Source of the DNA: Argopecten irradians
Lineage: Eukaryota > Mollusca > Bivalvia > Pectinida > Pectinidae
Reading direction: 5' to 3'
Assembly: GCF_041381155.1 (NCBI RefSeq)
Contig: NC_091142.1
Location: 3,847,778-3,911,777 of the forward strand
DNA length: 64,000 nucleotides
In this document: positions 1,372-31,504 of the stretch, in pieces
Layout: each line of letters begins with the position of its first letter
Numbering within the stretch: the first letter of the stretch is position 1
Notes under the pieces: generated by a model
What the model was told of the DNA's origin: nothing
Databases searched by the model: none
What the model saw: the letters and a program-made list of their open reading frames with translations, nothing else
Position numbers and translations under genes: made by a program

Positions 1372-2244
1372 ATACTGGATTGGCCTATATATGACGACAT
1401 AGCTGTCTCACTTAAACAGTTTGTTACACCATTGCTTCCTCTTACAGATGGTACAATGATATCAGCACACATCACCTGTTACAACGATTTTAACATGAAA
1501 CACGAGACAACTGCTTCTTTTCTCGTCCTCGGACACGCTCCTACTCTCACAGGTATGTGTAATGTTCTCGTCCTCAGAATGTCTCTTTGACTGATATATT
1601 TGCTTTCAAAATGACACATTTCCAATTTTAGTGGCAGTAATATTTTTTTTTTTTTTTTTTTTTTTTTTGTAAATAATTTTTCATCTGATAAAACATTGTT
1701 TATAATGTTCTTACATTGTTTTACAAAACGTTTTGTGCGCTCTACTTTTTCTTGCTTTAGAGTAATTAAATTTCTTTAAGAATTAATACATACTTTTAAT
1801 TGATATCGTTCTACACGCCAATATTTATTGCTTGATAAACTCTGAATACAGTTGCTAATTAATCAATGTAATACCTTCAATCGTATATAGGGTACAATAT
1901 TATAATCTAGATTCTGGCATAGAACAGAGGCAGGGGAAATTATATAATGGCAATCAAATTAAAATTCAAGAATTAAATGGTGTATTTTATTTTCCAGGAC
2001 AGCAAAGACTTTAGATGTTTCATGGAATGACTTTTTTTTTGTACGACCAAATTTGCAGCCTTCATACACCGTCACATTTGGGTCAGAAGAGGGTTTCACC
2101 GACATCGCAAGTCGTAAAAATTTACAAGAGCGGCGACACGTGTTTGACGTCTCTTATACCGGAAATGACGTATTTGCCATCGTAACCTGTACATACATAA
2201 CAGGGACGCCGAACGTGTTCCGTCGGAAAATGTTAGTCTCATAG
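1372..2244 (+). pseudogene. Copy A: 3' remnant of the PLAT/FN3 secreted-protein gene
   Basis: Two blocks match the last two exons of copy C. Block 1372-1552 matches the exon at 30281-30793 (for example TMISAHITCYND). It lacks the start of that exon and has an internal deletion of roughly 340 bp near 1503, but keeps a GT donor at 1553. Block ~1997-2244 matches the final exon at 31000-31268 and ends at the same TAG (2242-2244). The upstream acceptor has degenerated. Everything 5' of these exons is missing from the window, so this is a truncated duplicate and not a functional gene on this evidence. An alternative is the end of a gene whose 5' part lies left of the window, but the internal deletion makes that unlikely. 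Confidence 0.75.
1643..1668 (+). repeat. Poly-T run, 26 nt
   Basis: An uninterrupted run of 26 T lies in the former intron between the two exon blocks of copy A. It could be a homopolymer or the reversed poly-A tail of a small retroelement; no SINE body is visible next to it. Confidence 0.9.
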
Positions 2245-2790
2245 AACAGCTCGCGTGATTTCGTGTGTTATCTAAATGCTTGATGATGTATGGACTAAAA
2301 ACACTATTTATGCACTTGGATATTTATTGAATGACTGTAAGCAAAATAAACCAGGCATTGCTTTTTGCAATAAAAAAAAAACAACAAAAAACAAACACAA
2401 CATACATCTCTATGTAATGAATATCTTACTCTGCAATATATATGCTTCTCCCGGAACTTTATCAATCGCTTGTGTATATATTGTTGCGCTTCCAATTAAT
2501 AAATATGATGATCTTTAAGAATTACTGTCTTTGTTTTAATTGCTATCTACTACTAGTAATCGTTTTGTATTTGTACATATATGCATTTTATAAGGCTTTG
2601 ACGTACTTCATATTAATTATTATTGCTTTATGCCCACAATGTTGAATTAATGGAATGTGAAAAGATGTATTATTATGAAAGATGACTAATACTACTTGAA
2701 CTTGATCCTCGATAACTGCACAAAAAATGACTACTGATGATGAAGCAAATCACTTGAATATTTTATATGCTTGCTTTAAATTTTGATCAA
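2245..2790 (+). other. 3' flank of copy A, homologous to the 3' flank of copy C
   Basis: After the stop codon, A and C stay alignable: AGAACAGCTCG follows both stops, ATATGATGATCT is shared (2504 and 31513), and both have CTACTTG followed shortly by GATCCTCGA (2703 and 31969). Homology fades near 2790 and 32060. The AATAAA at 2498-2503 sits where copy C has AATAAA at 31505-31510, so it is the likely ancestral poly(A) signal. The block shows that the duplicated segment included downstream DNA, so the copies arose by segmental duplication and not retroposition. Confidence 0.65.
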
Positions 2791-4098
2791 CAGTAAATTA
2801 TTCATACCAATGTTTTTTTACAAGTTTTGATAACAATTTTGTCCCAATTACTGTTGAAAGTTAGCTTTCTATATTAGATGTTTCATCCATTATTATATCT
2901 ATTTCTGCGGCAACTTTAAACAATCCCGGTTTGTGTTAGCTCACCTGACACATGTATTGGTGAGTTTATGGCATGGCGCAGCATTCATCCATCGTACATC
3001 AACATTACCTTTGAAACGTTACTAGTCATAACGCTCTATATAGATTGTAAACAAATTTAGCTAGAAGCGTTTTTTAATATACGTTGGTTCCCACCTCCGG
3101 GGCAGGTGGTGTGGGGTCCACTAGTGGGAAGTAGTGGTTAATCATTTACGTCGCTACCAGTTCTTTTTTTATTATACCCAGCACAAAAATCTAGAGGTTT
3201 AAGTCCCCGTGTCTTACTCTAAGAAATTAATAGGTATTTTAGTCTCAAACGACGTGACAAAAGTCTGGTTAGTCAGCACGCTGCTTGCCGATTGGATTGA
3301 CAATTTGATCAATTATTCCTATTGCTTTATGCTGTTCAACATTATAGATAACGATATTTGATTTACTTGTTTGTAACTCTCTCGCCAAACCCACAAATAA
3401 AGCACAAAGGGTCATACCAGAGATAACACCCGGAAGTAAACCTCATTCTGTCGGTTTAAACACAATAAACATATCCAGATAAGAAATTCCGTGTTATTCC
3501 TGTTCAACAGGTAAAAATTTGATCTTAAGAGTACAACAGACATATGTCAATACATCTCATACTGTATTAAAATGAAAACAATAAACAATACGCTAATATA
3601 AATATCATAAAACTGGTCTATAAAATTAACAAACAATTCCAGAGCCTTCTCATAATTACTTTGACTAGTGGTCCTAATCCAATATCACATTGAATCGTCC
3701 CACATGTAGTTATATGATATAGTTATAAGTTGTACTTTTAAAACATTTTATTTAGTGTCTATTTGACATCGGATAAATTTGTCACGAGTTGTACTGAGTC
3801 CAGCGGAAACTCCTTTTATACATCGTACTATCGACTGAGAGACAGCAAAACTGCGTGACATTTCTCTAATACTGTCTGGTTTGCCAGGAACCACCGGTAT
3901 ATAAGGAGCTGTTCACCAGGAAGCAACGGAGATTTCCCATTTGTACGATTCACATATCATATCAGAAGAGAAAGCTCATTCAGAATAATTGCAAATGTAT
4001 CTGCAGTAATTCTGAAAGAAACCTGTTAGTCAAAGATTGCCTGTGAATGGGGATGGGACAAACGTTTCAACGCTACCCCCAAATTCATTTTCACACTT
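2791..4098. other. Gene-free spacer
   Basis: I see no ORF of note, no RNA gene and no clear repeat structure here, only A+T-rich sequence with a short G+C-rich patch near 3090-3125. Confidence 0.5.
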
Positions 4099-5147: not shown

Positions 5148-5275
5148 GCGAATCATTACTGTATACATATGTAAGGTGCTCAAAGTTTTACATTATTAAT
5201 TTGTTTGATATGAACAAAAAAAAATAATTGAAAAATATTCAATTAAAAAGTGTTGCGTTTTCATCGGCGCTCAGT

Positions 5276-7432: not shown

Positions 7433-10400
7433 ATGGGAACGGATTGTTCCCTTCTTTGGGGTATATTTATGCTTCTATTACTTCCGTTGTTTGTATCAGG
7501 TAAGAAACTATACGTTGTTTGCCTCGTGAAATAAGAGCCATACCCGATAACATAGATGAACTTTCATAATAAGAATTTTAGAAGAAACTTGTTAATACGG
7601 TATATTGGTGGATTAAATCAGATATTTAAATAAATAATACGTATGATGATTCAAATACATGCATATTTGATGTATGCAATTAATTATTTATTGGAGGGCG
7701 TGCTGCTGTTAAACCGTACACATTAAAGCATTATTTTGATCACGAGCTTGACAGGTTTGTCACGTTGTTGTAATGCGCGAAACAAGAAAAACAGTCACTG
7801 TAAACAAACTTTTATTTGCGTGCGATTTACTTTTGCGTATTTCGTAATCCAATGTATTCGTGAAAGTTTATATCAGCGAATTAGCCTCTACACCATTTAT
7901 ATTGATTGAATTTTCTGGTCATTAAACTTTTAAATGTGTGCATGTTAATCTTCGCAAACTTGTTTTGAAAAGGAAACAGTGGACAAAACTTAAAGATAAC
8001 CTTAGAAACATGATTTTAATTCTTGAAGTGAATTTTTAGTTTACAACTATGCAATGTGATAGCAAATCTGGACCTATAGCGACACTATATTGCATTTTAG
8101 AATAGCGTATACCTTTCGTGGTTTCAGGAGTAAGATTTCACGTGAAGATAAAAACTGGGAACAGAGAGTACGCCGCAACTTTTGCTAATGTACGGATAGA
8201 CGTGGAGGGAACAACAGGCACTGCACATTCGCTGTACTTAGGGAATTACTTTGATACTGGACATACCGACTACAAAGACGTGTATATTAGTGTTGGTAGA
8301 ATAAACAGGATTACTGTATACCATGACAATAGTAGATCTCAGCCAGGCTGGTATTTGGATTATGTATGTACACGTATTATTAAATATATATGTATTCACT
8401 AATCAGAATATATAATGTTCAACATATAATGGCACATCTAGTATAGCTATTCTTCAATGTTTGAGTCATCTGACCTGCAGGTCGTGGTACGCCGTGCGGC
8501 GTCAAACGTCAAATTTCAACTTCTTCTGAAGTTCCAGTGATGGGATTGAGCTAAAACTTGCCTGAAATGATCCGGACAAAGGTGAAATTGTTGATCGGGT
8601 GGTGTAGTGTTTAAGTTAGTCGCCATTTTACCTAGCAAACCGGGGTTCGATCCCCGGCGGTCAAGGGATCATCTACCCCTCGCGCGCTTTCATCCGAATG
8701 TCATTTGTATAAGTTGTATGACTTGTTCCACAATCAATGTAAAATAAATAAAGTTTATAGTTTGTATTTAATCCGGACATGGTCCCGACCATGTGTTCAT
8801 ATGTTTCGGGTTTATCCAAAAACAAGATGATCGAGAACAGCCGCCAACTTGGAAACATATTTTAAAGTTACATTTTTTCAGTTCTAATGGTGCTGGTTGA
8901 AACTATGCATCAATTAAAAGGCGAGCAGCCTTAGAAATGTTGTTATTTTTATTCTTGTAAGAAAGTACATAGGTCTATATAAGTGCATATTGAGATGACG
9001 TTATAGTAATACGATTGATATTATGGGATAAGAAGAGGAAGTACAATGTGTTATATAACATACGGGCAATACTTGATCTTTTGTTCATTTTTGAACTTGT
9101 GTGCACGTCTTATGTTTTTGTCCGGACATATCAGAGTATATATAAGTCTGATTATTTTTCTGTGTACTCATTTTACACAAAGAATGGCGAAGCACGCATT
9201 GTTGTGCGATTAAATGAAGATGTTACTTTGATTTTTTTAAAATGAACATGCTTTGATGCCTTTTTAGCTAAGGTTTTTAGAATATTGAATGTTGCATGAA
9301 TAAAGGTCGCTCCCTTTCCAATACGTATCCGTATACGAATGCGTATACATGTACATATACATGTACCTCTTAATGTAAGTAACCCTATTAAGAGGTTGAT
9401 ATATGAAACGCTCTTTCGAATGCTGATTAATTTTCCTTTTAAAATCACTGAAATATAAAATTGTGTTGACGTGGAAAATATTTAATGTGATTTAGATCGA
9501 GATGCACGATACAGCAACGAGACTGAAATATACATTTAACTTCTATTGCTGGGTGGAGCACAGAGACAGACATGGGAAAAACTCGAATGGTAATATCATT
9601 ATTTCCTATGTTGTTTTTGCTATTTATCACGTCAACGTCTCTTACATACTATTTTGTTTTAATTATGATAATCCACTTTGAAGTAGTGATCTTGTTCAAT
9701 ATAATTTCTATTGGTTTTAGTAGTCAAATTATTGATAGGAAAGAAATAGTAAGCCATATTTTTTTTATTCTATTTTTTTTCAGCAAAACCTATAAATACC
9801 TGTTAGTATGTTTTATACTTTCAACGTGCTATTTTTTTCAGCAAAACCTATAAATACCTGTTAGTATGTTTTATACTTTCAACGTGTTTTTTTTTCAGCA
9901 AAACCTATAAATACCTGTTAGTATGTTTTATACTTTCAACGTGCTATTTTTTTCAGCAAAACCTATAAATACCTGTTAGTATGTTTTATACTTTCAACGT
10001 GCTATTTTTTCAGCAAAACCTATAAATACCTGTTAGTATGTTTTATATTTTCAAAATCAGATTGAAAAGTTACGTAAACTTGACGTGTAACAAGGAGCGA
10101 GGTTAATATTTAAGGTTAATATTTAAGGTTATTATTTTAGGTTAATATTTTCAAATAACTTTAATACTGGTTTATTAAACCAATACACAAAATACTAGTA
10201 TCACTATCTGCACTGAAAAAACAACAACATATGGACACCAAAGTTTTGGCAAAATTCAAAGAGTATTGTAAACACGTTTTCTGTAATGTACAGAATGCTA
10301 CTATAACCAACCTATCGACAATTGTCTAGTGGACCCTGTAAGAGTTGAATGTCACATTGGAAGGTGTACAAGCTGTTGGGACGGGTTCTCAATCGACGGA

Positions 10401-13400
10401 AATAAATGTACCTGTAAGTATGAGAATGTAGAACTAAGCTGATGCTATTCATTTTTTTACATTATTATGTTAAAGGCACAATAAACATAACTTTTCAGTT
10501 GTTTGTTTAATCACAAACATTTACAGGAAAATCACCATGTTCTCTCAGCATAACATGTTGACTTAGGCCAGGTAAGATGTTACTGAGACCAACTGTGAAG
10601 TTTCGAAATTTATAAAAAAAAAATAATAAAATAATAAAATAATTAAAGTGGTCTACAATAAATACAAACCGAAACGATACGAAGAAATTCACGGGAACTC
10701 TCGATTTCCAGAAAATATCACGTGACCCGATCGATATTGGCTATAGGCCTATATACGAAACGCTTCGGTAATTGTCGTGACCCGATCGACTTCGCACGGA
10801 AAACAGGAACAAACATGATAGCGGCTGTAGGCCTATACACAGCGACCTGGCACGGAATTTTAACCAACAGTATATATATGTATTTAATAGTATCATTTAT
10901 TTCTCTTTAAGGTAAATTATGAGGCAATGATATATGTAGAACCCGTTTATTAAAATAAAACTCATATGATATGTCCGTTTTTCTCAACAGTAGAGTTCAT
11001 ACCGTTGATACAATGATACATACTAATATATATATGTATATACCGTTGGTAAGAAATATGTGCCCGGTCCCCGTGGGCCTATATACGAAACGCTTTAATT
11101 TAATAATTATCGGTTTTGCAATTGCGACTGTTTCAAGATAGCAGATATGTTTACAAGACGATTTTTGACCGTTCGATATCACAGGTTTATCTGCACAGAA
11201 TAATGTCATAATACACGTCTTTCATCTTTATTCTAGGCCATTGGTACAATGTTTGATCATTGTATATGTTCGTGAATAAAAAAAAAACACACTTGAAGGT
11301 TACGTATATTGGGCTTTTATGAAATGTGATACATATAATTAGACATTTACATTAAAACCTATATTTTTTATATTCCATATCTTATAACAATTTTGATATT
11401 GCTGGTACAAGCATCAAGGTTTGTGGAAGCTTTGACAGGCCAAATTTATTACTGATATAACATTACTATGTACTAGAGAAACATATACATGCAACTATTT
11501 TATACATATGGATAATATTTGTTAAGTACACATTTTAAGCTTATTTTGAATAGTGTTAATGTATCTTTGTCATTAAAAGTTACAAGGACTGCGGAAGCTT
11601 TGACATGCCAAATGAAAATAACAGACGAAAACAATGACGAAAGAATAGCCCACGTGCCACCTGGTCAACCGAATACATGCTCCAATCAGCGGGACTTTTA
11701 CGGCAACATACAGGTGAAGAAAGTGGACACCATTGCGGATTTTGATCTTTTATTGAATATATCCCATCCGGATTCCACAAAGCCTCGATTCGTTACTGCT
11801 TATGCATTTGGTATCACTGACGTATATTTTCACATTGTGAAAAAATCTTTGACAGGTAAATCTTTAACGCTTCGAATAACAACTTGATAAATTAATCAAT
11901 AAATGTCACTTTGTGTGCATTTGTAACCTAACGACAAAGCTATGTATACTGCATACCTTTAGTGATCACGGTATAATGTCCTCTCATTGGTATCTTCGAC
12001 ATAACTAGTCAGTTTCTTTATGTTTAAAAATATTTTATCTGAATGTACAACGTAATCAATACATAAAATAAACGATTAATACAAATACAAAAAAAATGTT
12101 TGAACTAAAACATTTTGGTTTTTGTAAGTGGCAACAGTTCTGAAGAAAATCAAAGTGATTAAATTCAAAGGCATAATGCCCGACATTTTTTTTTTTAATT
12201 TAAGACACTTTATTACAAGATATCGTTTGTAAGATTGCCATGTACATCTATATAACAAATTGCATGGCAACCGACATATACCAAGATAAAATTTGCTTTT
12301 TGTCTTTCAAAGTTACGTCATTTCAATCATTTCGATGTCAACAATAGTTGCGTAACCTCTTTTTATTCCGACAGGCGCAGAAGTTAATACCACATTTGTT
12401 CTTAAGGAAGACAAAGAAAGTAGGAACCCCGTACATCGATTGACGTATAACAGGACAATGGACAATCCGATCAGTAACGGCGATTTGGAAAACGGACAAA
12501 GGTTAAATATTAAACGCATCATGTGTTATTGTTTACTTATAACAATATCTGGAATCATGTTTTTTAATTTCTGATATTTTTAAGTTTTTTAGGTATGGTA
12601 AAGAGAGTTTGTATAAGTCATACTTCTGACCTACCAGTAGGTTGAAAAATGAGTAATACCTGTAAATCGCTTCTAACAATTGAGTTCTGGATAATTGTTT
12701 TCTAGGATTATGATAACATATGGTAAGCAATATATTCAGAAATTATATAAATACACATATATGATTACGTGTGTGATCATTTTTATTTACTGTGATAGTA
12801 TAACTTTAGGCATTGCATTTACAAAGTGTGGTTACCTCATCATAACATCTAAACTTTATGTTCAAGGCTTTGTCTACGACTTGAAGTGCTCGGAGGAGGC
12901 CATGCGAATTTTAAAAATGTCTTACCTAATACCACGGAATCCGTTCAGTACCCGAAAACGTCCACTGTGAGGGATATATGTTACTGGTATGACGATGCCC
13001 CACCAGAGCACTGCCTGGAGCATTCTTTTTGTGGTACAGAACCACTGGACACGGCCAGTCGTATCCTGACCAGTCGGGACTTCACAGTGACCGTGACAGG
13101 CTGGGATGACCCCTCTCCTGTACCGGGAGACCCGAAGTTCGCTTCTGGTATACACACATACGTGGTAAACATGTATGAAGTTAAAGAGTCGGGGTCTGAT
13201 TTCCTTGACGTTGGAAGAAAACCTGTTTTACCGGCAGTTGTGAAAGAGAATTTAACTCAAGTCAATATAAGCATTCCCTCAAATTTACCAAATCCAGCTA
13301 TGTACGCAATAGTTTTAGAAGTGACGGACATTGCTAACAATGTGCGACAAGCTCGAAGATTCGTCATGTTTGATAATTCATCAACCGTAACCTCGCGGGA

Positions 13401-15476: not shown

Positions 15477-16940
15477 TGAGAACCATAAAAACCTGTTGAA
15501 ACGTTGATTGCAATATCAACATTATGAAATAAGCACATCGAAGTGAATGAAATTGAAATAATTAAAAATAATTTTCATTTACCAAGATTATCTAGTCATA
15601 CATTCACATGACAACATCAAAGTCATGTCAATTACCTTATAAAAGAGTCCAGAGAAAAAATGTGTAAACAGCAATTTTAAATGGTATTTGAAGTATATAT
15701 TAGAACATTAATGCATCACATAATTGTACAAAATGCCCGTGTAATGACATGAGATTAAACGTGAAGTTAGCATGACCTTACTATTACAAGATATAATTAT
15801 ATCGTTGCGTTTAAAAAAAACGATGATGACGAACAGATTGTTGTGTATTGGGAAGGAAACACATGATGAAACTGAATCTCGTCTGGAGAAAACACATATG
15901 TCTGCGACAATTTATGTATAATATATTTTAACAACAAGGTGTGGAAATGAATATAGCGTTTCTAGGCGTCTCTTGAAGTGTTTCTGGTGCGATGAAAAGA
16001 AAAGGGATCATATTATGTACATCTGAGGGCGTTGTACTATGATTGTCCTTTGATGATTCACATTATTCGTGATGGGATATAGTCCTCGAGTTCGGATTGC
16101 ACCTAATGCTATACTATGTATGACGAATTATGATGGTCGTCAAACATGTAATGTATGTTTATTAAATCATTCACACATCGATTGCTTGATGGATGGAAAT
16201 TGACGTCCTTGTTCTGGTTATAGCCGAGCAATTTGAACAGAATCATTTCGACTATTTGTCAAATTTCTTATGTTAAAATATCCCATTAATTTTTTATCTT
16301 CTAATCAATCATACCATGTGTGTCATCAAGAGTTATCTAACATTAAACAATTCCCTTTGTTGGGGTAAGAGGTAAATATGGTGTGATGATAGAATGTATA
16401 TTTAAGTATCAAAATCGTTATTTGATAGACATGTAATATGGGAAAATGAAATATCAATGAAAATTACGTCAAGTGATGACGTTATAATCACCGGATTGTG
16501 GGACAAATCGTTTGGGGATCTGCAACTACTTTATTAGAATGATTGCCAAGGACTCAACCCTAAACAATTGAACGTTTTAGTAAGCATTGCATTGCTAGTA
16601 CAACATTAATCTGATTACGAGTTCACAACATTGACGTAAAGTCGATGTTTCCTACAGTGCAAATGCCGATATCTAATAACTTATATACCCAAACAGGATA
16701 TACTGTTTGTCTATGAGTCAGGACATGGTCAGGGATATCTTAGCCCGAATGAAATATTCTTTTCTTCCATCACAAACATAGGTAAACAACTGTTATTCTT
16801 CCATTCGAGATTACCCTTTTGAACTCGTCGATCTGATAAGATATATTATTATACCTCACTTTTATTTAGAATGTTCTGATTGGATTAAACTTGATCACAT
16901 GACATTGAATAAGTTAGATGTTTCCCCGGAATTGGAAGGC

Positions 16941-17046
16941 GAGGGAAATAACCCCAGGGAAATAACCCCCGAGGGAAATAACCCCCGAGGGAAATAACCC
17001 CAGGGAAATAACCCCGAGGGAAATAACCCCAGGGAAATAACCCCGT
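16941..17046. repeat. GAGGGAAATAACCCC minisatellite, about seven copies
   Basis: Units of 14-17 bp of the form (CGA)GGGAAATAACCCC follow head to tail. Each unit is itself partly self-complementary at its ends (GGG...CCC). The motif recurs loosely in the loop of the palindrome 200 bp downstream, so the two may belong to one element. Confidence 0.9.
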
Positions 17047-17224
17047 GGAAGCTCCGCACGTGACCGGAAGTTGACGTCATCTGCAACGTCAACCAACAAT
17101 GGCAACGCTGTTGTTTATTTTTTTGTAGCCCAACGAATTTAACAACGTTGTTGTTGGGAAATATCTTCATGGATTCTTTTAACAGAGATTTTTTTTCTTT
17201 TGATTTTGTTCGGTATAATAAAAT

Positions 17225-17363
17225 AATTATGTCCCTATGTGTCGGGATACATCTAGAATTGTCTCCCTGGAAAGAGTTATTTTCTCGAGGGCGAAGCCCG
17301 AGAGAAAATAACTCTTTCCAGGGAGACAATTCTAGATGTATCCCTCCACAGAGGGCCATAATT
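17225..17363. repeat. Large palindrome / foldback, arms of about 65-70 bp
   Basis: The inner arms 17244-17291 and 17297-17344 are nearly perfect reverse complements (GGGATACATCTAGAATTG opposite CAATTCTAGATGTATCCC) around a five-base centre, with one small mismatch block beside the loop. Weaker pairing continues to about 17225 and 17363. The element would form a strong hairpin. It resembles the end or whole of a foldback/MITE element; no transposase is present. Confidence 0.9.
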
Positions 17364-20300
17364 GTATATTATTATAACCCTGATAGATATATTTTTTGAC
17401 TAGTCAATATAATGCTTGCTGATTTTTTTGACATTCAGATTGACTTTTCATTTTTATTCAAATACAGCTGTGTTTACTTTAATATTATAGAATTCACAAT
17501 GTTTGATATATAAAATGAAAGTAAACAGTCCCAACAGCCTTACAAATCAGCAATGTTATCCGGAAGTAAGACTTATTCCTATGCCTTACATGTATTTTTC
17601 TACTTCTGCATGAATAATAACATCTTTTCATAGAAGTAATATGTCACACAATTAAATAACACTTGAAAAGATAGGTGAATAAACAATAGTTCATCTTTTA
17701 GGTATTTCTGGCGGTCATCTTGAAACAAATAGTCGCCAGTAGTGAAGCCAAATGGGTATTTTGCGAAGGCCCAGATTTCAAAAACATTTACTTTGGTATG
17801 AACTGATATGATGTCAAATGTCGTACTTCTATCATAATGAGCACTATTTATGCCTCAATATACGCGACAGATCTAAATACATCAAAGTATGAAAAAAACA
17901 GAAAGTTTTAGAACAGGAAGTTAGTTTTATCACTGAACACAAACATGAATGAACAGGTCGAGAAAAGTAATTATGGAAAGGTCACCCTGTGGATACTCAC
18001 ACAATCCTAGTGCAGTTTCAGTTCCGTTTATGTTTACGATATATTATATATGATGTGTTCTAAGTGAATAGAAGTCGCGTAAAAGTTATGTAACATTTTA
18101 GCATTCCAGTCAGAGTCATACCATTAACATTTTAGCATTCACATGATGTTAAACTTAATTTACTCAAAGTAGACCGGATGGCGGTTAAGCTTCATATTGT
18201 CAGAGTATTTGAGTTTAAATAAAATGAAAAAGTTTGGCTGAGGCAATCACAAACAATACAAACAACGTATTTCAGACTAGGTCTTCGAAATTCATGAGTT
18301 CTGTTAAATAAGATTACATTGAGCGTGGATATGTTAACAACGTGTTTGACCATATTTGTTTTAATTTGCCCTATTAAATAGTTAGAGATCGTATTAACAA
18401 ATACTAAATATTGCCCATTGCTTTAATATACTTTTAACTGCGATTGATGTAGCTTAAATTACCACATATGTCCATTAACATCGAAAAGACAAGGAAACAC
18501 ATTCATGGCACAGTTCTAATTGTACATTAGTGAATTCCCTGGGTAATTAGATATCAGTCAGATTTCATGATAATCCAATGTGATTTATCCCTGTAAACAC
18601 CACCAACTATAATGATAAACAACAAAAGTCATTAAACATGTTTTGTAAACGCATCTATAGGAGGAAACATGCATTTAGTTTAAAACGTATCGATATTATC
18701 AATGTTCGGCCATTCAGTTACTATACGCACTTTCATTAAACTATATTTTTTTAATGTTTTAGATGGAAATGACGTATTACTAGTTTCATGCGTAGCTATA
18801 CACTATTGAAAAGGAAATTGTAGGTATAGGGTCATCAGGTTGAGTGATTATAGTAGACTTATATAAGACTCTCATTTTGGAGATTAGGACCAAAAGACAC
18901 ACTATATAAAATCTTACACTTCAAGTTTTTTAATCTTTCTGTGGTGGAAGTGAAGATATCAGAGTGAAATGAACGTTTAAACCTACATTAGTTATTATAT
19001 AATATAAGTAATATTCATGCACAGACACGTTAGTCGCCAAGCCTTTTTTTATCTTATAACGCTATCTTAAACAAATCAATCATACATGTAGTTAGCAAAC
19101 GGAAACATTCGCAAGCACTCGGGTGGGCTGCACCCAAACTTCACAGTCGTATAATATATTGAGTGTTGAGCGAAGAGGTGAGTTACTCGATGGATTGATT
19201 GTGTGTTGATACTGGTATTTGGCAAGTTGGATTATACTTTTTACTAGCATGATTTAACCAAGACAATATTGTATATGTAAATGGAAAAGAAATAACAAGC
19301 AGCTTACCGGGATATACACTCATTAATATGCATATCAGTACATCATATTTTGTTTTTGTAGTTTACTATCTAATATATTAATAACTATACATTTATGATA
19401 CAATTATATAATATTGCAATTGTTCTGTAACAGAAACTCAAATATTTTAATAATAATTAATATTTAAAAATCAATTTAGCAATTGATAAATATGAATATT
19501 AAATGATTTATATTTTAATACATATAACATGCTATAGTATGACATTATTTTGGTTACATCGATCCCATATAGTAATTGTTTTCAGCTCCTCTATGAAAAA
19601 AAATTCGACAAAGGAAATAAAAACAAAAAATGAAATAAACACAACGTGATAGTACAACCTATATGGTAATCCCGTCATATCATGCTGTCAACAGAGACCC
19701 TTTGCATGGAGGTAAGTACACTGTACTATTGGATATATAAGATGAATTAAGCTTTCATGATATTGATTTCACTGTAATATTTTATTATCAGTTTCCTGTT
19801 ATATATCGTATTAATAAATCAAGTTCTCAAATTATCTCGGTAGGTTTAAAAATGAAATGTCCTATTCACTGTATAGTGATGGTAACTATTTGGTGGTGAT
19901 TATTCACGGTCATTGTTTGTTGTCTTAGGTACTTAACTACGTGACTAAGCCGATGCTAAATAATGGGGACGAGTGTTGCCCAGACGTTGGGCGTTTTCAT
20001 GATTCTTTCTATTTCGTTAGCAGTAACGGGTAAGAAGCATTTTAAGAGACATTTTATTACACTTTATTCATCTCTTATTAATTTGATAAAGATGAGTACA
20101 TTTTGATAAGTGTGATATAGGTCCATAGATATGTTTAGGCTAGTCGCAATGATTAAATATATTTCCGCAATTTACTCTATGACATAATACCATGTTTTGT
20201 AAGTCAATGGGAATGCTAGTTACAAGAAAGAAATCATATCAGTCTTTATATTATTGAAACATAATATGATATAGATTGTTCCGTCTCAAAATCTGAAAAC

Positions 20301-23300
20301 GTTTGAATGCTTCAGGTGTTACATTACACGTTAAAATAAAAACTGGAACTATATATTGGGCTGACACGCGTGCTACAGTGAGTATGGATATAGAGGGAAC
20401 AACGAACAATGCAAGTTCTGTATATCTTGGCAATAACTTCCAAGTAGACGGAACTAACTATATAGACGTGGAGGCCAACGTTGGAAGAATAAACAAAATT
20501 ACCGTTTACCGTGACAATCGTGGGAAGAACCCGGGATGGTTTTTGGATTATGTATGTATATATGAAAATGTAGAATATGATCATAAGCATATACAATCCA
20601 GAGATAATAAAACTTTGATTGGTCTCAGGTAGTCACTAATTCGTAAAAAGCGTAAGTTAGTGTGCAATTTAAAGTTAGGTGTGCTATATACTTCTGGTCA
20701 ATATTATGTAGTGTGAATTATATATATATCAATCATTATTTGTTTGGTCACTGCATACTATACTATGTATATCAAATGTACCCCTAAACGGATCTGTAAA
20801 GATTGTTAATGGTTGGTCAGCATAAGGATAGCTGAGAGCCATAACGAACCATAACCTTTCATTTCATTTGAGGTTTCTGTTTATTAATGAGCTAATCTTG
20901 TTCAGTAAATTTCAAGTAAATGATAATGTTATGACTAATGTTTATCTTACTGTGTTTTGCTTAATGTATAGAACATGCTAAACCATTATGTAGCATGTTA
21001 AAGATGTTTTGCCCACTACCCATCTGTAAGATATAGAATAGACATTGTCCAAAAAACCACCAGACCGTATAGATGATGCTGTAAACGACTGTCCTCTTAT
21101 ATGTATTCATGTGATTTAGATTGAAATAACCGATGCATCAACTCGACTGAAGTATACATTTAAATGTAACTGTTCAGTGGTAGAGAGTCAAGACCTAAAG
21201 ACATCCTCAAAAGGTATGCTATTGTAACATAGTATATTCATAATCAGTATTGAAACTTAATATCAGGATAGTATATGTATGTTAAATATTTTCAAATTCG
21301 AGTTGAGAAGTAAAGAATAACGGATAACAATAATCATTATTAATAGCTTTAATGCTGCTTAATCAAATCGATAAACAATTTATTTGTATCAGTATATACA
21401 TTGGAAAAGAAGAACATTAACCTTTTTGGCAAATACTTAAAGAAAAATGTAGAAAAAAATGTAGACACTTTTTTTCTATAATTTACAGAATGCTACTACA
21501 GCCAACCTATCGACAATTGTCTTGTGGACCCTGTGAGAGTTGGGTGTCACATTGGACGATGTACAAGCTGTTGGGACGGGTTCTCAATCGACGGAAACAA
21601 ATGTACCTGTAAGTTTAAAAATGTAGATGTAATTTAATTTGTTTTTCTGATATTATATTAATATGTTCAGGAATGGGATAAAATCATTGGACAATCATAT
21701 TAATACAGAACTTTTTTATATTTTATATCTTTAAACCATTTTGATGTTGTTTGCAAAAGTTGTAAGGTCTGTGGAAGCTTTGACAGGCCAGATTGATTAC
21801 TGATATAACATTACTGCATAATAGAGAATGAAATATACATCCTACATTAATATGAACATTTATCTTAATGCAAGTATCTTATATCTATAGATACTATTTT
21901 TACACTTTCTAAGTTAGCTTATTTTGAACAGTTTTTATGAATTCTTGCCTTTACAAGTTACAAGATCTGCGGAAGCTTTGACATGCCAAATGAAAATAAC
22001 AGACAAAAACAATGACGAACGAAGATCGCAAGTGCTACACGGACAACCGAATACATGCTCCAATCAGCGTGACTTTTACGGAAACATACAGGTGAAGAAG
22101 GTGAACACCATTACGGATTTTGATCTTTTATTGAATATATCCCACATGGATTCCACAAAGCCTCGATACGTCACTGATTATGCGTTTGGTATCACCGACG
22201 TATATTTTCACATTGTGAAAAAATCTTTGACAGGTAAATCAGCGCTTTGTATTAACAACTTGACAAATGAATCAATAAATGTCACTTTGTGTACATTTGT
22301 AACATAACGACAAAGCTATGTATATTACACGCCTTTAGTGATCACGGTATAATGTTCTCTCATTGGTGTCTTCGACATAACTAGTCAATGTCTTCATGTT
22401 TAAAAGGTATTTTATCTAAATGAACAGCGTTATCAACACATAAAACAAACGATTAATACAAATATATAAAATATTTGAACGGACACATTTTGATTGTGTA
22501 AATCTCATCAGTTTTGAAAAAATCAAAATAACTAGATTTAATGGCATGACCGACATTTTTTTCAATCAGTATTTTTGGATACTTTATGGCAAGATATCGT
22601 TTATACGATAAATACGTTTTACGACTTGTACATGTACATAGCATATTGCATGGTAAACTACATATATCAAGATACAATTTGCTCTTGTTTATCTTTAAAT
22701 GTTACCTTAGTGGAGGGAGATAATTTCAATGCCAACAATCTTTGTGTAACCTCTTTGTTATTCATATAGGCTCAGAGGTTAATACCACCTTTGCCCTAAG
22801 GGAGGACAAGGAAAGTAAGAACCCCGCTCATCGATTGACGTTTAACAAGACGATGGACAATCCGATCAGTAACGGCGATTTGAGAAACGGACAAAGGTTA
22901 AATATTAAAAACATCATGTGTTATTTCTTAATTACAATATCATCTGAAAAAATCTAGATTTCTGAAAATTTTAAAGAGTTTTAGGTATGGTGAATAGAGT
23001 TTGTATAAGTCTTTGTTCTGACCTCCCTGGGCCAGGAAGGGTAGGTCCAGTAGGTACAAAAATAAGTAATACTTTTAAATCGCTTCTAGTATTTGCGTTC
23101 TGGATGATTGTTTTCTAATATTACAATAACATATGACAAGCAATATATTCAGAAATAATATCAATACATATAGATAAGTACATGTGCTGCGCAAGATCAT
23201 GTTAAGTGTGGTAACTGCATCATGCCATCTAAACTTTATGTTCAAGGCTTTGTCTACGACTTGAAGTGCTCGGAGGAGGCCATGCAAATTTAAAAAAATG

Positions 23301-26300
23301 TTTTACCTAATACAATGCAATCCGTTCAGTACCCGAAAACGTCCACTGTGAGGAATATATGTTACTGGTATGACGATGCCCCACCAGAACACTGCCTGGA
23401 ACATTCCTCTTGTGGTACAGAACCACTGGACACGACCAGTCGTATCCTGACCAGTCAGGACTTCACAGTGACCTTCACAGGCTGGGATGACTCCTCTCCT
23501 GTACCAGGAAATCCAAAGTTCGCTTCCGGTATACACACATACGTGGTTAATGAAGTTAAAGAATCAGGACCTGATTTCTTGGACATTGGAATGACTCCTG
23601 TTATACCAGCAGTACAGAAAGAGAAGTTATCTCCGGCAAATATCAGTATCCCATCGAATTTACCAAATCCTGCTTTGTACGCTATAGTATTAGAAGTGAT
23701 GGACGTTGCTAACAATGTGCGACAAGCTCGAAGATTCGTCATGTTTGACAACTCATCAACAGTAAAGGCACGGGATGACAAAATATTATATTCCACAACA
23801 GCCTCTCGGAAAACGAACCACAAGTGGCAAACGAACCATGGACAGATATGTTACTCCTGGACCGACAAATACTACAACGACAAATTTCATACACTGACTC
23901 TTCTTAACCCAATTCGAAACGATTCACATGGCTTGATCTCTGGTGTTTACGAACAAACAACTGGAATCCTTCCCGTATCAGGAACTGAAAATGTCCACGG
24001 CATCACGAGGTTTTATTACACACTAAGACGGGATGGGATGATAATAAATAACACAGATGTTCCAGACTTTACGTCACAGAAATTATGTGTCTCACCAAAA
24101 CTAACTGATGGAGAAACTTATCGTTTAGATTTAGTAGCAGAAGATGTGATGATCCATACCTATGCAGACTCCCTGGTTATTTACATTGACTCTAGTGAAC
24201 CGGACATAGTCGATATTTGGCTCGAGAAAGACGGATATGAGCGACTCTTTGTACATAACAGTATCGACTTGTCTAAAATGATCCTCACATTCGATGCGTC
24301 TGATATACACAGTGGTATTTACTCCGTAGACTGGTTTCTTGGTACAACTTTTGGAGGGAACGATATTGGACAGGGCTCCATTGGTATACAGCGGCTCGGC
24401 CCCAACGTAAGTATCTCTTCATTTCTTTCGTGTGAATGTCCCGCCAATATTAGAACATTGACAAATGTTAATTTAAGTGCTCCCTGTCATCAGCGTGTAT
24501 TGCTTTAACTGGCACTGACATGTGGAGGACGAAAAATATTAATTGTTTAGTCAGATCCGTGTTGAGTGTATTTAATCGTAATTTGAAATTCATACATTTC
24601 CTTTTTGAAAACCCTTGTATAATCCATTTACATATGCCAAATTTAAAAAACATTACCTTTATCATATAGAGGAACGCAGAAGTCATTAGTCATTATTTCA
24701 TTACCATTTGACCATTACAAAGTACATGGATATATAATTATTCGCAAACAGATGAAAATCAACAATTATATTTGTATTTCAGATGACCTGTCCGGATGCT
24801 GTACTTAACTGTTATTGTCCTTCTGTAGGAGTTTGTTCCTTTAACAATTTCACGCTCCATCTGAACTCACTCGTCCATAACCACACCCATAAAGGAAATC
24901 ACAACCGCCAGTACCACTTTACCATAACAGTTACAAATATAGCTCAACTTGTCTCTGTAGAACATTTAGAAATACTGGCTGACGACTCGCCGCCCGCCCC
25001 GGGTGTTGTGATGGAAGGGACGATCGGGACACCAGACATAGACTACACGAGTGATGAGATAATTACTGTAAACTGGGCCGGATTCATTGATCATGAGAGC
25101 GATATAAAGTTGTATAAGGTCGGACTGTCGACAGAGTGTTTAAAATTGCAATGTTTGGACGATCAAATGACAATATCACGAATAACGGGATATCGGTCTT
25201 GGAAACAGCATTGACATCGGCCCGTCTTTCTCTGCCAGACGATGGGAAGTTCTACGTGACTGTAGTGGCTTACAACAACGCTATGGAACCATCAAAGCCC
25301 GTCTGCTCAGATGGTATCGTTCTGGACAGGACTAAACCAAAGTTGGTCAACTTAACGTTACAGAGTGCGACTATGATGGAGAGTATTCTATGTTCTGATG
25401 GTAGCGCCTGGTTCATCACAGCAAATTTAACGAAACACGAATTACGCGACATTGAGTGCAGTGAAAAGTGTCAGAACTCTACCACAAATGACTTTATTTC
25501 GAGTCTTCCAATGGACATCCCGGATATGAAACACGATCTTACTCCGACCTGCAACATAAGTGCTTTACATGGTACTATCTATCTCCCGATCGATTTGATT
25601 AACCTAAAATGGAATATAATCGAGGGTGAAAGCCAAACCTACGAGGCATTCTTTGGGATAGGCTCAATAAAGGATTGTGGATCTTCTCCAGATGTAATAG
25701 GTTACCAGAAAACTCATCACAAATACTTCTACAAGAAACGACACACTGGCCTTAGTAACGGAGATGAGTTCTACATCTTCATCAGAGTTACCAACAGTGC
25801 CGGCCTTGGTACGACGGCTGTGATTGGTCCGGTTCTACTTGATGAGTCCCCTCCCTCCTGTCCTATCACACTGCTACCAAATATCCATGACGACACTTTA
25901 TCAACTGGAACAATGGAGAGTTCCATGATAGTGATCAACATGAGCACATATCGTCCTTTTTTTACCGAATAGGTAAATGGGTTTACTTCGTATTTATTTC
26001 TTCATAAGTAACCTTGCTTGATCTAAAAAAATCAAATAGGAACGCAATACTTAATATCGTTAAGGAAAATATGTTCTACAACACTTTGATTATTAGCAAT
26101 TAACAATTTTCATTTCTTAACTGCAGAGTCAATTTCATGACTTGTGCCTCCTTTAATTTTTAGGTCGTGACGGGAAACTAGTGTCCGGATTTATCCCCCT
26201 TCTGAACACTGGATGTAATGTGAGTAAGTGCTTCAACATTGACGTATCAGATATACAAGCCTACGACATCCATGCAGGATGTGAATTCTATATTGAAGTT

Positions 26301-27692
26301 TATGCCTTTAATAACGCCGGTTATTACTGTACTATCGATACCGAACCATTCTTTCTTCCATCGATTCTACCTCCTGGTCATGGGATCGTTTTTGACATCA
26401 CACCTGGTAACATCTCCCCTCACAAGAGCTACGATGACGTCGATATAGCGTTAGCGTCATCTCAAGTTTGTGTAGCGTGGGAGGAATTTGAACATCATGA
26501 CGGTGTTTCCTATGAATTCGGAGTTGGATAATCTCCTGGAACTGATGATGTGGTTTCGTTTCACCAAATCAGCAATACCGGCGTTAATTGTGATTCATCA
26601 GTTACTAACCTGACCAAGTATACACAGTATTTCTCAACAGTCCGAGCGTCGTCAACAGGAGGAAACATGGTCGGAATCTCGGACGGTTTAATCATGGTCA
26701 ACGAAGATGATATTGATTCTTTAATCTTACAGGTTTATGATGGACAAGGATGTTCTGGACGTGCACACATTCTAAAAGATACCGTGTTTTCAACAAAAGA
26801 ATTAGCCTTTATTCCAGCCGACAAAAATTTCCATATTGGACATACATATACCTTTATAGCAAACGCGAGCGTTTCCATTCTTAGCGAAGAAGCTATCATT
26901 CACACTCAGAGACAAATAAAACAACTATATTACACAGCTTTTACACCGATGGTTCGCTCCCCTCGCTTCAACGTGTCATCCAATGACGATAAGAATTCTC
27001 ATGTCAGATTATACGTTGCTGACTGCGTCATCAATCATGACATCATGTTTGCATCTCACCGGGTGTCAGTCTACTGGGACAATGATGATTTCCATCAGTA
27101 TGTATCACATTACGAAGTAGAACTCCGGGTGGTATCACGTGACAATGCATCACAAACTGATCTCGTGACATTGGCGTACGGCAAAACTTCTGGTAATACC
27201 GCGGTCTACAGTTTTAATGACGTATCGTTAAGATCCGGGAGGTATATTATTTCAGTCAGACCTTGTATTCGGGAGATGTGCTTGAAATGGACCAGTTCTG
27301 ACGGATTTGTAGTCACGGATGCTACGTATGATGAGTTTAGTGTAGAGGCTAACTTGCATAAAATAGGAGACGCGTGTTCAAGTGTTAGCCTAACAATATC
27401 AGATATTGAATGTCCATCCGGAATAGATCATAGGTGTGATGTTATTGCTCGGTGGGGAATATTTCAGGACAACAAGGCCACACTACAAGTTACACCATGG
27501 ATTGCACATCAAATATCTGAAAATCAAACAGAAAATTTCATGGTGAGTTTATTTGTCTTTAAATTACAATGCTTCGTTAAACATTATACCATGATATTTT
27601 TTATATATAGTAATGTTTTTTTATATATTATATTTTGCTTTTTTACCCGTTTCGTGATCTTGTCATTTTAGTTTATATACTTGATGAATCAC

Positions 27693-27712
27693 TTTATTTA
27701 CAGATCTGACAG
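27693..27712 (+). promoter_or_regulatory. Tandem 3' splice sites, exon 10 of copy C
   Basis: Two AG acceptors lie 9 nt apart (ending 27703 and 27712). Both keep phase, but use of the first puts a TGA at 27707-27709 in frame, while the second opens straight into CIKIPLYPHQ. The second must be used for a continuous frame. Confidence 0.5.
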
Positions 27713-29681
27713 TGTATCAAAATCCCACTGTATCCTCACCAGACATTGTTAACATGTGTTGAACTTTACTGCCCTTTGGGAACCTCTGGCTTACAATGCG
27801 TCCCTTTAACAGTATCAGAGGATCCCAACAGTTTCGACAAGACAGCTCTGTACGAGGTAGACTCTGATTTAGATGTTGTCAGGGAAATAAGGAACTTCAT
27901 CCACGCTTCAAATTTAGGACAAAGACTCGCGTCGTTACATGAGGCCGAACTAGACTTCTCTACAAAGCCTGTTCGTGTTGGCGGGATAATACTTGGATTG
28001 GAGGATCGCCAAGTCACATGGTATCTACTGAAGGATAAAATGAACCAATCATTCACGTGTTACGATAATCCCATGTGTGTAACTGTCCATCAAACTGTCG
28101 GAGGATTTTGTCCTTTTCAGGGGATTGTACTTGAAAACGAAATAATCCACTACATCTGTGCCGAGATAGAAAGCTATACAACTCCGAATGGACAGATACT
28201 CCCTGCCTTTCAGACTTGTGGTGATGGGTTCGTTTTTGACGAAAATCCGCCCGAGAAAGGTGACGTCATTATTATATCACAGAACGGGTACATCACCAAC
28301 AACAGACATATGCTGGTCCACTGGAATGGGTTTAAGGATTTCCATGGTTACAAAGACCTGGGATACCCGGACAGTATATCCAGATATGAATATTCAATAG
28401 GTAAGATGGTAAGATCATGGTTTCTTGTATGTTGACAAGCTGCATTGAATTGCAATGAATGAAATATATATTTTTTCCGATTATTGTTGCTTTTTCTTGC
28501 TTTTGGGTTTTTTTTTCTTTTTTTGTGGGGGAAATATACAATTTCTTACAACATTAATATCCTCTAATTTAAAGGAAGCAATCCATATGGAGAAGACGTT
28601 GTTGCCAGGAAGACAATCGGTCATTCGAATTCCGTGAAAATCATCAGTCCGAATCTCCATCCGGGTTCCACGTATTATGCCACCGTTACCGGTATGACAT
28701 TTATTAGTTCACACATAAGACACAAAGAACACATCAATCATCACATGTTGATAATCTGTTTTGTATACATTGTATTATTAGCCTTACTAATGTGCTTTAT
28801 ATTTTTTTTAATTATCTATTTACAAGCATTTGATCACGTGGGCTATTCAAGCACAGTTGTCTCCCCTGGAGTTCTGTATGACGACACACCCCCTGTACGT
28901 GGATCGTTACATGTTGGAACCTATCTGATGTCAAAAGACTTTATTGAGTCAGAGGTCCACGTGCACTGGACAGGTTTCGATGACGACGATAGTGGAATCG
29001 ATAGGATACAGGTGGGAATTGGATCAACCAAATCGGAAACAGATATCGTGAGCTTCCGGAACTTTTCCGGGAAATGCGCCATATTTACTGACCTCTCTCA
29101 CTACCATGACGGACATGACTATTATGCTATCATTCTGGTGAGTAACTTTTCTTGTATTCAAAGTGACAAGACACAATCAATTATCGTGTAAGATATACAA
29201 TTTATGAATCAGACACTTTTAGATTTTTTTTGTGTGTTTTTCATTCAGGTGACAAACAAAGCGGGTCTGTCAGTTCTGTCAGCGTCAGAATCGTTTGTCA
29301 TAGATAAATCCCCTCCTACAAAAGGCACAGTCCAAGATGGAGTTGACGTTCAATCGGTACTGCAATTTTTTGTGGCATTTATCTGAACTCTTTCATGAAG
29401 TGAAGAATTAATAAGAATGTTTACTGATTGAACGGTATTTTATTGTTATATAAATTTTCTATCAATATGGTTTTTCATGGCGAAACATATGGGGTTTTTT
29501 AAATGCAAAATGTATCGTGAAGGGATTAGCTGATCAATGATTGTTCATGGCTTTTTTTTATCATCATGAAAACTGTAAGGAAAACACATTGCTTAAGTTT
29601 ATTTATAGACACGAATATTGAAAATAACAACAATATGTGCGGTCAATGATGATCTTTATTTTATTTTTATTTTATTTACAG

Positions 29682-30108
29682 CCGGGACATTGTCTTAAGC
29701 TAATACGACACATGTGGATGTCATTGGTCCGGATTCTGTGACCCTCATTCCGGGAGTGTTTGTATTAGATACAGCAGGTTGAACTCTTTCATGAAGTGCA
29801 CCCCTTTCCCTATTTGGTACAGATATGTAGGGGCAGGTTCCACACCCGGCGGGTTTCAGATCCATCCGTTAGTTATTGTGCCACGGTCATCAACACTCTT
29901 TCATAGAGGCATTGCATGAAACGGACAGGAGGTGCCATATCACCGCCATTGTAGAAAACCATGCCGGAGATCGGAGTCACTTTCACGCACGTCCTGTTAT
30001 TATGGAGTCACACACACATGCCACCTTGGGAACGTGACTGACGCAGAAAGTAAAATAACTCAATGTGCACCTGTGACGCAGAAAGTAAAATAATATGTGC
30101 CTGTATAG
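29682..30108 (+). pseudogene. Degenerate exon 14 of copy C
   Basis: Sequence after the acceptor at 29681 still shows coding-like fragments in changing frames, such as SANTTHVDVIGPDSV and later CHITAIVENHAGD, the latter like the end of an FN3-type module. Several stops separate them. Exon 13 ends in phase 0 and exon 15 starts in phase 1, so an exon here was needed and cannot simply be skipped. The end is a guess from a possible GTATGT donor at 30109. Confidence 0.45.
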
Positions 30109-31504
30109 GTATGTCTATGTAATAATATTGATAAATATGGCATATCATGTGCATTAGTTTTCGTGTTTTAATACTATAAACTATATACTATAAAATCACA
30201 AATAATAACTAAGTACCTATATCGATAAACATACGTGTATGTCTTAAATGTGAGTCAATGCATTTTTATTTCTGTTTCAGTGGACGACGACAACAGACCG
30301 ATATATGACGGTATAGCTGTCTCACTCAAACAGGTTGTTACACCATTGCTTCCCCTTCGACATGGTACAATGATATCCGCTCACATCACTTGTTACAATG
30401 ATGCTAACATGAAAATATTGACTACTGTTGGACCGGAACTTATTTCTTATCTTCCTCCAGACGTGAAGGAAGGTGAAATATCCTTCGTAACAACAGCTGA
30501 GACATCGGCCGGATTTCCTGTCACCTGTCCGAGTTCACCATTAATGTTTTTCTGGGAAGGTATCGATGACGCATTTGGAATCAAAGGTTATTCATACTGT
30601 ATCCTCCAGGGTGGCCAGGTTACAAAGGACTGGGGGGAAACGAAGATGCGGACCTCCGTATTGGTGGAGGATATCAGTCTCACAAACAACCGTCTGTACA
30701 CTGTGGAGGTCATGGCCAGTAACTACGCTGGGGTTTATAGCGAAGCCATCAACGCCTCTATTCTCGTCTTCGGACATGCTCCTACTCTCACAGGTAAGTG
30801 TAATGTTCTCGTCCCCAGAAAGGCTCATATATTACTGTGATACAATTTCTGCATTTTGAAAAGGATTATATAATATAACTTAATATCAGTGTTAACATTA
30901 TTTTAGAAGTGTGTGCAGGCTCTTTGTACATAGTTATGGCGATGTAATGATAAGATATACATCTCAGGATATCTAACCTTTGTTCTTTATCACCTTTAGG
31001 TAAATTTCCACGGATCACAAGAACAGGCAATACTTTTGATGTTTCATGGAATGACGTCTTTTCTGTGCGACCTGAATTACAGCCTTCATACACCGTCACA
31101 TTGGGATCAGAAGAGGGTTTTACCGACATCGCAAGTCATAAACATTTACAAGAACAGCGATACGTGTTTGATGTCTCCTATACCGGTAAAGACGTATATA
31201 CCATCATAACCTGTACATACATAACAGGGACGTCGAACGTGATTCGTGGGAGGGTGACAGTCTCATAGAACAGCTCGTGTGGTTTTGTGTATTATCTAAA
31301 TTCTTTTGTTTGGTGATTAATGCCGTAAAACACTGCTTATAAAATTGATGGTCTTGATCATTTATGGAATGGCTTTAACCGAGTCCTGACACTACTTTCT
31401 ACCAAAATAAAATGAATTAAAATAAAATAAAAAATACACTTCTATCTAATGAAAATCTTTCATTATGATTTTCTCTGACCTTTCATATATATCATTGCGC
31501 TTCA

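What the first reader, a model, noticed from the sequence alone, without database searches (positions are those of the whole stretch)
1372..31268. Three tandem copies of an undescribed PLAT + FN3-like gene, broken in complementary ways
Copy A retains only the 3' end, copy B only exons 1-8, and copy C spans everything. B and C share exon lengths exactly for exons 1-6 (67, 236, 94, 120, 276, 127 nt). Homology of A and C extends past the gene. This fits repeated unequal exchange with later deletions. The architecture (signal peptide, PLAT, six-Cys module, at least five D-S/T-PP repeats) matches no named animal family I know.
Basis: partly seen in the sequence, partly recalled or inferred. Interest (0 to 1): 0.75.

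Follow-up and report, generated by a model that had tools for sequence, protein, structure and literature searches.

The report
Broken copies in a head-swapping gene family
The three copies are all damaged members of a larger family of giant, apparently secreted animal proteins whose long tails are kept alike by DNA exchange between copies while their tips stay very different, a pattern known from some recognition-protein families.

Summary
Three related gene pieces lie in tandem, B and C share exon lengths 1-6, and PLAT is confirmed (48.6 bits, cut-off 23).

Two corrections. C does not span everything: it lacks about 4.1 kb that codes for much of the FN3-like stalk in relatives, and has three frameshifts and one stop in exons 7-9. 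So all three copies are damaged. They also belong to a family with ten close PLAT exons on this chromosome; the modelled full form has 20-22 exons and about 3,300 residues.

More interesting is a mosaic. In six of seven chosen pairs, synonymous divergence in exons 2-6 (head) is 1.1 to saturation but 0.02-0.17 in exons 9, 10 and 12. C is D-like upstream and F-like downstream; a C-D clade is rejected for exon 8 (p 0.0002) though not for exons 9-10 alone. Distant relatives carry a C-type lectin or thrombospondin-1 exon upstream of the same stalk.

Best reading: a secreted modular binding protein with exchangeable heads on a stalk homogenised by recombination. Ligand, expression and species are unknown.

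The parts
1384..1585 (+). Copy A, exon 19 remnant with an internal 328-nt deletion between 1500 and 1508 (not a multiple of 3)
   Evidence: blastn to C 30298-30414 and 30750-30826
1990..2244 (+). Copy A, last exon (exon 20) with the shared stop codon; DNA homology runs on to 2565
   Evidence: 86% to copy H, 75% to copy C
7433..7499 (+). Copy B exon 1, signal-peptide-like
   Evidence: hydropathy
8128..8363 (+). Copy B exon 2, PLAT first part
   Evidence: Pfam PLAT aa 27-124 of B
9496..9589 (+). Copy B exon 3, PLAT end
10294..10413 (+). Copy B exon 4, six-Cys module (phase 1-1)
11580..11855 (+). Copy B exon 5
12375..12501 (+). Copy B exon 6
12867..14031 (+). Copy B exon 7, tandem FN3-like pair in its middle part
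14823..15476 (+). Copy B exon 8; family homology ends about 15346, then a novel tail to a stop at 15474-15476 (truncation shared with B')
15477..19480 (.). Spacer between B and C, collinear with the spacer between B' and D
   Evidence: blastn 84-90% in pieces
19963..20029 (+). Copy C exon 1
20316..20551 (+). Copy C exon 2, PLAT
21120..21213 (+). Copy C exon 3, PLAT end
21489..21608 (+). Copy C exon 4, six-Cys
21958..22233 (+). Copy C exon 5
22770..22896 (+). Copy C exon 6
23247..24406 (+). Copy C exon 7 with a +1 frameshift near 23291; the D-like to F-like switch lies near 23.7-24.4 kb
24783..25972 (+). Copy C exon 8 with -1 near 25142 and -4 near 25897
26164..27542 (+). Copy C exon 9 with TAA at 26529-26531
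27743..28400 (+). Copy C exon 10
28575..28691 (+). Copy C exon 11
28827..29137 (+). Copy C exon 12
29249..29356 (+). Copy C exon 13
29682..29779 (+). Copy C exon 14, 5' part only, with small indels
29780..29825 (+). Junction of the roughly 4.1-kb deletion (rest of exon 14, exons 15-17 and most of 18 missing)
   Evidence: C 29779/29826 against D 11433/15662, F 14741/18909, H 12069/16142, I 13330/17472
29826..30015 (+). Copy C exon 18, 3' remnant
30281..30793 (+). Copy C exon 19
31000..31268 (+). Copy C exon 20 with stop

Best explanation
A, B and C are damaged copies in a multigene family on chromosome C9. An undamaged member would encode a signal peptide, an N-terminal head (PLAT, one to three Cys-rich modules, a domain from exons 5-6) and a very long stalk of FN3-like repeats, with no membrane segment seen, so a secreted protein of about 3,300 residues. 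SHOWN: copies have exchanged DNA; within a group of copies the stalk half (introns included) is far more alike than the head half; head exons are phase 1-1, so they can be added or lost without a frameshift; more distant relatives have a C-type lectin or TSP1 exon upstream of the same stalk. INFERRED: the head binds a ligand (for PLAT perhaps lipid, glycan or protein) and the stalk is a spacer or multimerisation scaffold; the family works like other modular secreted recognition or adhesion proteins. B, C and A are by-products of the exchange (truncation plus segmental duplication, recombination plus deletion, decay).
Against: Exons 9-10 alone do not reject a C-D clade (p 0.137). Stalks are homogenised within groups, not across the family: E-H has stalk dS about 0.8. 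Some head pairs are closer (PLAT dS: BG 0.41, GH 0.45, HI 0.51, BH 0.62). dN/dS of heads is 0.06-0.28 over exons 2-6 and at most 0.54 in single blocks: no pairwise sign of diversifying selection. A head clade of E with K is not rejected (p 0.2). The fifth copy of the lectin group, C231, gave no lectin exon. No expression data. Gene models are from my own splice-site script; head models of E, F, I and K are uncertain. That the lectin and TSP1 exons are spliced to the stalk is inferred from order and strand. The exon 7 model is of middling confidence (pLDDT 65) and that of exon 17 poor (42).
Confidence: 0.75

Rival explanations
1. Assembly artefact: stalks were collapsed or mis-joined, or the copies are haplotypes, so that both the mosaic and the lesions are errors.
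For: Copies F and especially G carry many +1/+2 insertions in exons, which looks like unpolished long-read sequence (my recollection of such errors); D, H and I each carry a few indels as well.
Against: Stalks are not identical: every pair differs in introns 7-13 (89-94% among C, F, H and I; 77-79% with D). C has -1, -4, a CAA-to-TAA change and a 4.1-kb gap, not insertions alone. B' shares B's truncation in an inverted block at 84-93%, last exon 75%. E and K, 6.2 Mb apart, show the same head/tail contrast.
Confidence: 0.12
2. No exchange: the heads simply evolve much faster than the stalk under diversifying selection, and the three copies are ordinary tandem duplicates that decay.
For: Heads differ much more in protein than exon 7 does.
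Against: The contrast is in synonymous sites and introns, not only in amino acids; head dN/dS is well below 1; C groups with D in the head and with F in exon 8.
Confidence: 0.05
3. B is a working short form: a head plus one FN3 region ending in a hydrophobic tail that could anchor it in a membrane.
For: B is open over eight exons and its new C-terminus ends in a hydrophobic stretch (19-residue mean 2.02); the truncation survived a segmental duplication.
Against: B' carries a 1-nt insertion before the tail, and exons 2-4 were not found for it in the stretch fetched; chance open frames in AT-rich DNA are often hydrophobic (recalled); no expression data.
Confidence: 0.15
4. A structural matrix or adhesion family (for example shell, mucus or egg coat) in which stalk homogeneity is what matters and the heads are incidental.
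For: Long FN3-like stalk, secretion signal, 33 N-glycosylation sequons in K.
Against: PLAT, C-type lectin and TSP1 in the same position suggests a binding tip; nothing here tests tissue or ligand.
Confidence: 0.3

Closest known systems
Fibrinogen-related proteins (FREPs) of snails
   Same: Multigene recognition proteins in an invertebrate whose diversity is credited to gene conversion and point mutation (abstract start and passages of PMC12074976).
   Different: FREPs are defined by fibrinogen-related domains (same source); none was found here in what was scanned. Here no diversifying selection or somatic change is shown.
Sp185/333 (SpTransformer) genes of sea urchin
   Same: Clustered, gene-conversion-prone family with segmental duplications (passages of PMC5103432).
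   Different: That paper reports almost no pseudogenes, and the genes are small with two exons (abstract start of PMC5491942 in the listing); here genes of 20 or more exons with several wrecked copies.
Polycystin-1
   Same: PLAT and Ig/FN3-like repeats in one large protein (recalled).
   Different: PLAT here is at the N-terminus; no REJ, GPS or channel segment was matched by Pfam in what was scanned; no membrane-like segment in the K model.
LOXHD1 and lipoxygenase/lipase PLAT proteins
   Same: PLAT domain.
   Different: A single PLAT and no enzyme domain in B; LOXHD1 is made of tandem PLATs (recalled).
Clustered protocadherins and other families with homogenised exons
   Same: Part of the coding region under concerted evolution while another part stays distinct (recalled).
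   Different: Here the homogenised part is the 3' stalk over several kb including introns, and the distinct part carries different domain types.

Membership tests
PLAT/LH2 domain proteins | Pfam PF01477 above its cut-off | tested here: met
   48.6 bits against 23 in copy B
Fibronectin type III proteins | Pfam PF00041 above its cut-off | tested here: met
   31.8 bits against 25 in exon 18 of copy H; below cut-off in H exons 9 and 17, in K exons 8 and 18 and in the window's own pieces
Fibronectin type III proteins | FN3 fold in exon 7 | tested here: met
   AF2 model of middling confidence; first match SiiE (Ig-like), most other listed matches FN3 pairs
Polycystin-1 family | REJ/GPS modules and transmembrane channel | tested here: inconclusive
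   No such Pfam match; highest 19-residue hydropathy 1.28 in K; exons 13-16 were not scanned in any copy
LOXHD1 | Tandem PLAT repeats | tested here: not met
   One PLAT stretch in the first 876 of 912 residues of B
Lipoxygenase or lipase | Catalytic domain next to PLAT | tested here: not met
   No such Pfam match in the first 876 of 912 residues of B
FREP | Fibrinogen-related domain | tested here: not met
   No such Pfam match; exons 13-16 (about 167 residues) not scanned
Multigene recognition families diversified by gene conversion | Exchange between copies | tested here: met
   dS contrast and clade tests; exons 9-10 alone inconclusive
Multigene recognition families diversified by gene conversion | Diversifying selection on the binding part | tested here: not met
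   Pairwise dN/dS of heads 0.06-0.28, at most 0.54 in single blocks; site-wise tests not done
Multigene recognition families diversified by gene conversion | Binding or immune expression | not testable with these tools
   No expression or binding data

The most novel reading that the evidence does not exclude
An undescribed invertebrate recognition system in which one long FN3-like stalk carries interchangeable heads (PLAT, C-type lectin, TSP1), head exons being shuffled as phase 1-1 cassettes, the stalk kept uniform by gene conversion, and wrecked copies such as A, B and C serving as donors of head or stalk sequence.
Probability: 0.2. Interest if true: 0.85.

Novelty: new variant of a known kind. 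Interest (0 to 1): 0.62.

Why it matters
If it holds, this family is a clear natural case of a protein whose tip diverges while its stalk is kept the same between copies, with different known binding domains mounted on the same stalk. It makes a testable question out of how large invertebrate receptor repertoires are built: head exchange upstream of a recurrent recombination boundary near exon 7. It also warns that annotating any single copy in such an array, or naming orthologs from the stalk, will mislead.

Tried and rejected
C as an intact full-length gene: rejected. A as a gene lying whole upstream of the window: only exon 13, weak traces of neighbours and intron scraps were found in the 20 kb upstream. 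Haplotype artefact: unlikely. Diversifying selection on heads: no pairwise sign.

Organism: tests gave no answer. The mollusc haemocyanin family gave no match and that search rang nowhere, so it is uninformative; a myosin-tail exon matched PDB chains named Myosin-9, -10 and -11 best.

Structure of exon 17: poor model (pLDDT 42), not used. PDB sequence searches: profiles of exons 7 and 17, no match up to E 10; single exon 17 sequence, none up to E 1. The TSP_1 search of the genome scored 150 of 507 candidates and its list does not show the C3 copy, so it says nothing on that point. NCBIfam, PHROGs and PADLOC were not searched. Rfam: no match in the window.

Papers: eight searches were answered. 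PLAT domain with FN3 and mollusc: 0. PLAT domain with fibronectin, invertebrate, gene family and expansion: 1, a coral skeleton paper, listing seen only. PLAT domain with FN3, extracellular and bivalve, any three: 13, of which 10 listed, listing only. PLAT with FN3, gene conversion and invertebrate immune: 1 (passages of PMC12074976 seen, where both 'plat' hits are other words). PLAT with lectin, thrombospondin, FN3 and expansion: 0. Gene conversion with variable N-terminal and others, any four: 9, listing (passages of PMC5103432 seen). PLAT domain with signal peptide, lectin and oyster: 0. Concerted evolution with exon shuffling, pattern recognition and invertebrate: 2, listing. No paper was read whole. 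No animal proteome could be searched.

Pairs and rows chosen: 13 pairs and seven were picked by me. Left out before counts: copy G from dS stalk blocks and trees (too many indels); copy B exon 8 and C exons 14 and 18 from dS; codons touching indels, and stop codons, skipped; exon 3 from the head tree; heads of I, G and B' partly not found. One search had a filter fault of mine and was redone.
Full report
WHAT IS IN THE WINDOW. Self-comparison confirms three related stretches on the plus strand. B has eight exons, all in frame with GT-AG ends, giving 912 residues. C has the same first six exon lengths. A keeps pieces of the last two exons. The shared sequence of A and C runs about 320 nt past the stop.

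WHAT AN UNDAMAGED COPY LOOKS LIKE. Fetched paralogs on the same chromosome show what the window copies lack. Splice-site models and exon-by-exon alignment give a short-head form of 20 exons (67, 236, 94, 120, 276, 127, 1165, 1195, 1376, 658, 117, 311, 108, 157, 184, 51, 1604, 1260, 513, 269 nt; 9,888 nt, 3,295 residues, phases consistent). Copies E, F, H and K have two more Cys-rich exons between exons 4 and 5 (120 and 138 nt in the H and K models), and G has the first and traces of the second; in the B and C genes, B', D and I there is no match to either (one chance match at window 57476, E 0.36; the head of I is itself degraded). Copy K gives an open model of 3,320 residues without a membrane-like segment, though its head model is uncertain. 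Pfam finds PLAT in B (48.6 bits, cut-off 23) and fn3 above cut-off in exon 18 of H (31.8, cut-off 25), below it in H exons 9 and 17. Exon 7 of B, modelled with 16 relatives, has confident parts (pLDDT 65 overall). The first structural match is the bacterial Ig-like adhesin SiiE; most of the other listed matches are FN3 pairs.

DAMAGE. Against the family, C lacks about 4.1 kb between exon 14 and exon 18: it jumps from 29779 to 29826 where D, F, H and I have 4.03-4.18 kb more. In H that interval has open frames of 567 and 432 residues, the second running beyond it, with several D-x-TPP motifs. C also has three frameshifts in exons 7-8, a TAA in exon 9 where five relatives have CAA, and small indels in the rest of exon 14. 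B leaves the family sequence at about 15346 and ends in an unrelated tail. A has lost its 5' part: an exon 13 and intron scraps lie upstream of the window, and exon 19 has a 328-nt deletion. So none of the three is an intact gene of the full type. Indels are also seen in D (one clear), H (one), I and F (several) and G (very many, mostly insertions), and part of this looks like poor polishing. The lesions of C include deletions, a substitution and a large gap, so insertion errors alone do not explain them.

HISTORY. (1) B's truncation is shared by B' on the minus strand near C9:4042 kb, and the order B'-spacer-D mirrors B-spacer-C over window 12864-31263 in pieces at 84-93%, the last exon at 75% (tail compared). 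The truncation therefore predates that inverted duplication. (2) B' has an H-like exon 5 (95-96% in protein) and exon 6 (71%) but B-like exons 7-8. (3) C is D-like from 19.6 to about 24 kb (92-98%) and mostly closest to F, H and I from about 24 kb on. Introns of the 5' half of C align only with D, and in part with B; introns 7-13 are 92% identical to F and 77% to D. The head groups C with D at 100/100. Exon 8 groups C with F and rejects C with D (p 0.00017), as do exon 19 (0.012) and exons 8-12 with 19 (6.7e-5). Exons 9-10 alone do not (p 0.137).

HEAD AND STALK. In six of the seven pairs I chose, synonymous divergence is 1.1 to saturation over exons 2-6 and 0.02-0.17 over exons 9, 10 and 12. 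The seventh, C-D, is low in both (0.09 and 0.13) but rises to 0.35 in exon 8 and 0.39 in exons 19-20, as expected of a recombinant. E and K, 6.2 Mb apart, show the contrast too. The likeness of stalks holds within groups (C, D, F, H, I; E with K), not between them: E-H has stalk dS of about 0.8. Some heads are less far apart (PLAT dS 0.41-0.62 for B-G, G-H, H-I and B-H). Since introns show the contrast as well, selection on the protein does not explain it; exchange between copies downstream of about exon 7, with little or none upstream, does. Head dN/dS is 0.06-0.28 (the lowest, E-K, rests on a saturated dS), so the heads look conserved rather than driven apart.

OTHER HEADS. The stalk is wider spread than PLAT. 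A search with exon 7 finds 41 places, with relatives at 55-60% (C9 35.9 Mb, C968, C231), 40-41% (C3) and mostly 26-33% (C6, C2, C4, C8). In the 10 kb upstream of the C9 35.97-Mb copy no PLAT first exon matched, but there is a C-type lectin exon (Pfam 48.3 bits, cut-off 22.6); upstream of the C3 61.84-Mb copy a TSP1 exon (38.3, cut-off 21.6). On the same strand follow, in the C3 copy, both extra Cys modules, exon 5 and exon 7; in the C9 copy the second extra Cys module, exons 5, 6 and 7, and by eye a likeness of the first. Related lectin exons lie upstream of the stalk in four of the five copies at 55-60% (three on C9, and C968, whose lectin exon has a stop); C231 gave none. For TSP1 only one of two C3 copies was read.

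HOW IT PROBABLY WORKS. The anatomy (signal peptide, binding-type domain at the tip, Cys-rich connector, long FN3-like stalk, no membrane segment seen) suggests a secreted protein whose tip binds something and whose stalk gives reach or assembly. This is inference. Phase 1-1 exons let heads and Cys modules be gained or lost without a frameshift. Similarity-driven exchange keeps the stalk alike, and unequal exchange leaves wreckage such as A, B and C.

AGAINST KNOWN FAMILIES. It works like known recognition families shaped by gene conversion (FREPs, Sp185/333; passages seen), but it is not a member of either: no fibrinogen domain was found in what was scanned, and the genes are of quite different make. 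Polycystin-1, LOXHD1 and lipoxygenases share PLAT but not the layout (recalled). I found no description of this architecture in Pfam, PDB sequences or eight answered paper searches of an open-access library; animal proteomes were not available.

VERDICT. The broken trio is ordinary wreckage; the family behind it is the more interesting find.

Noticed in passing
window 41412-43640, minus strand: A leucine-rich repeat ORF (LRR_8, 229 bits) followed by a rhodopsin-type 7TM ORF (7tm_1, 76 bits): probably an LRR-containing G-protein-coupled receptor.
   Followed up: partly
window 53466-54284, plus strand: Thioesterase-like open frame (4HBT_2, 34 bits).
   Followed up: partly
window 39781-40741; 44092-46491; 35487-35772; 9773-10054: Tandem arrays with units of about 38, 130-154, 45 and 58 bp; the last lies in intron 3 of copy B.
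   Followed up: no
L018/L019 (C9:4086-4105 kb, copy G): Exon 9 of copy G has dozens of small insertions and few deletions, as in unpolished long-read sequence; caution for reading pseudogenes in this assembly.
   Followed up: partly
   Followed up: no
genome C9:4388312, 4393607, 4398925, minus strand: Three further PLAT-like exons at 32-34% identity to the K head, spaced about 5 kb.
   Followed up: no
window 15416-15476: B's novel C-terminus is strongly hydrophobic and could be a membrane or lipid-anchor signal; B' has a 1-nt insertion just before it.
   Followed up: partly
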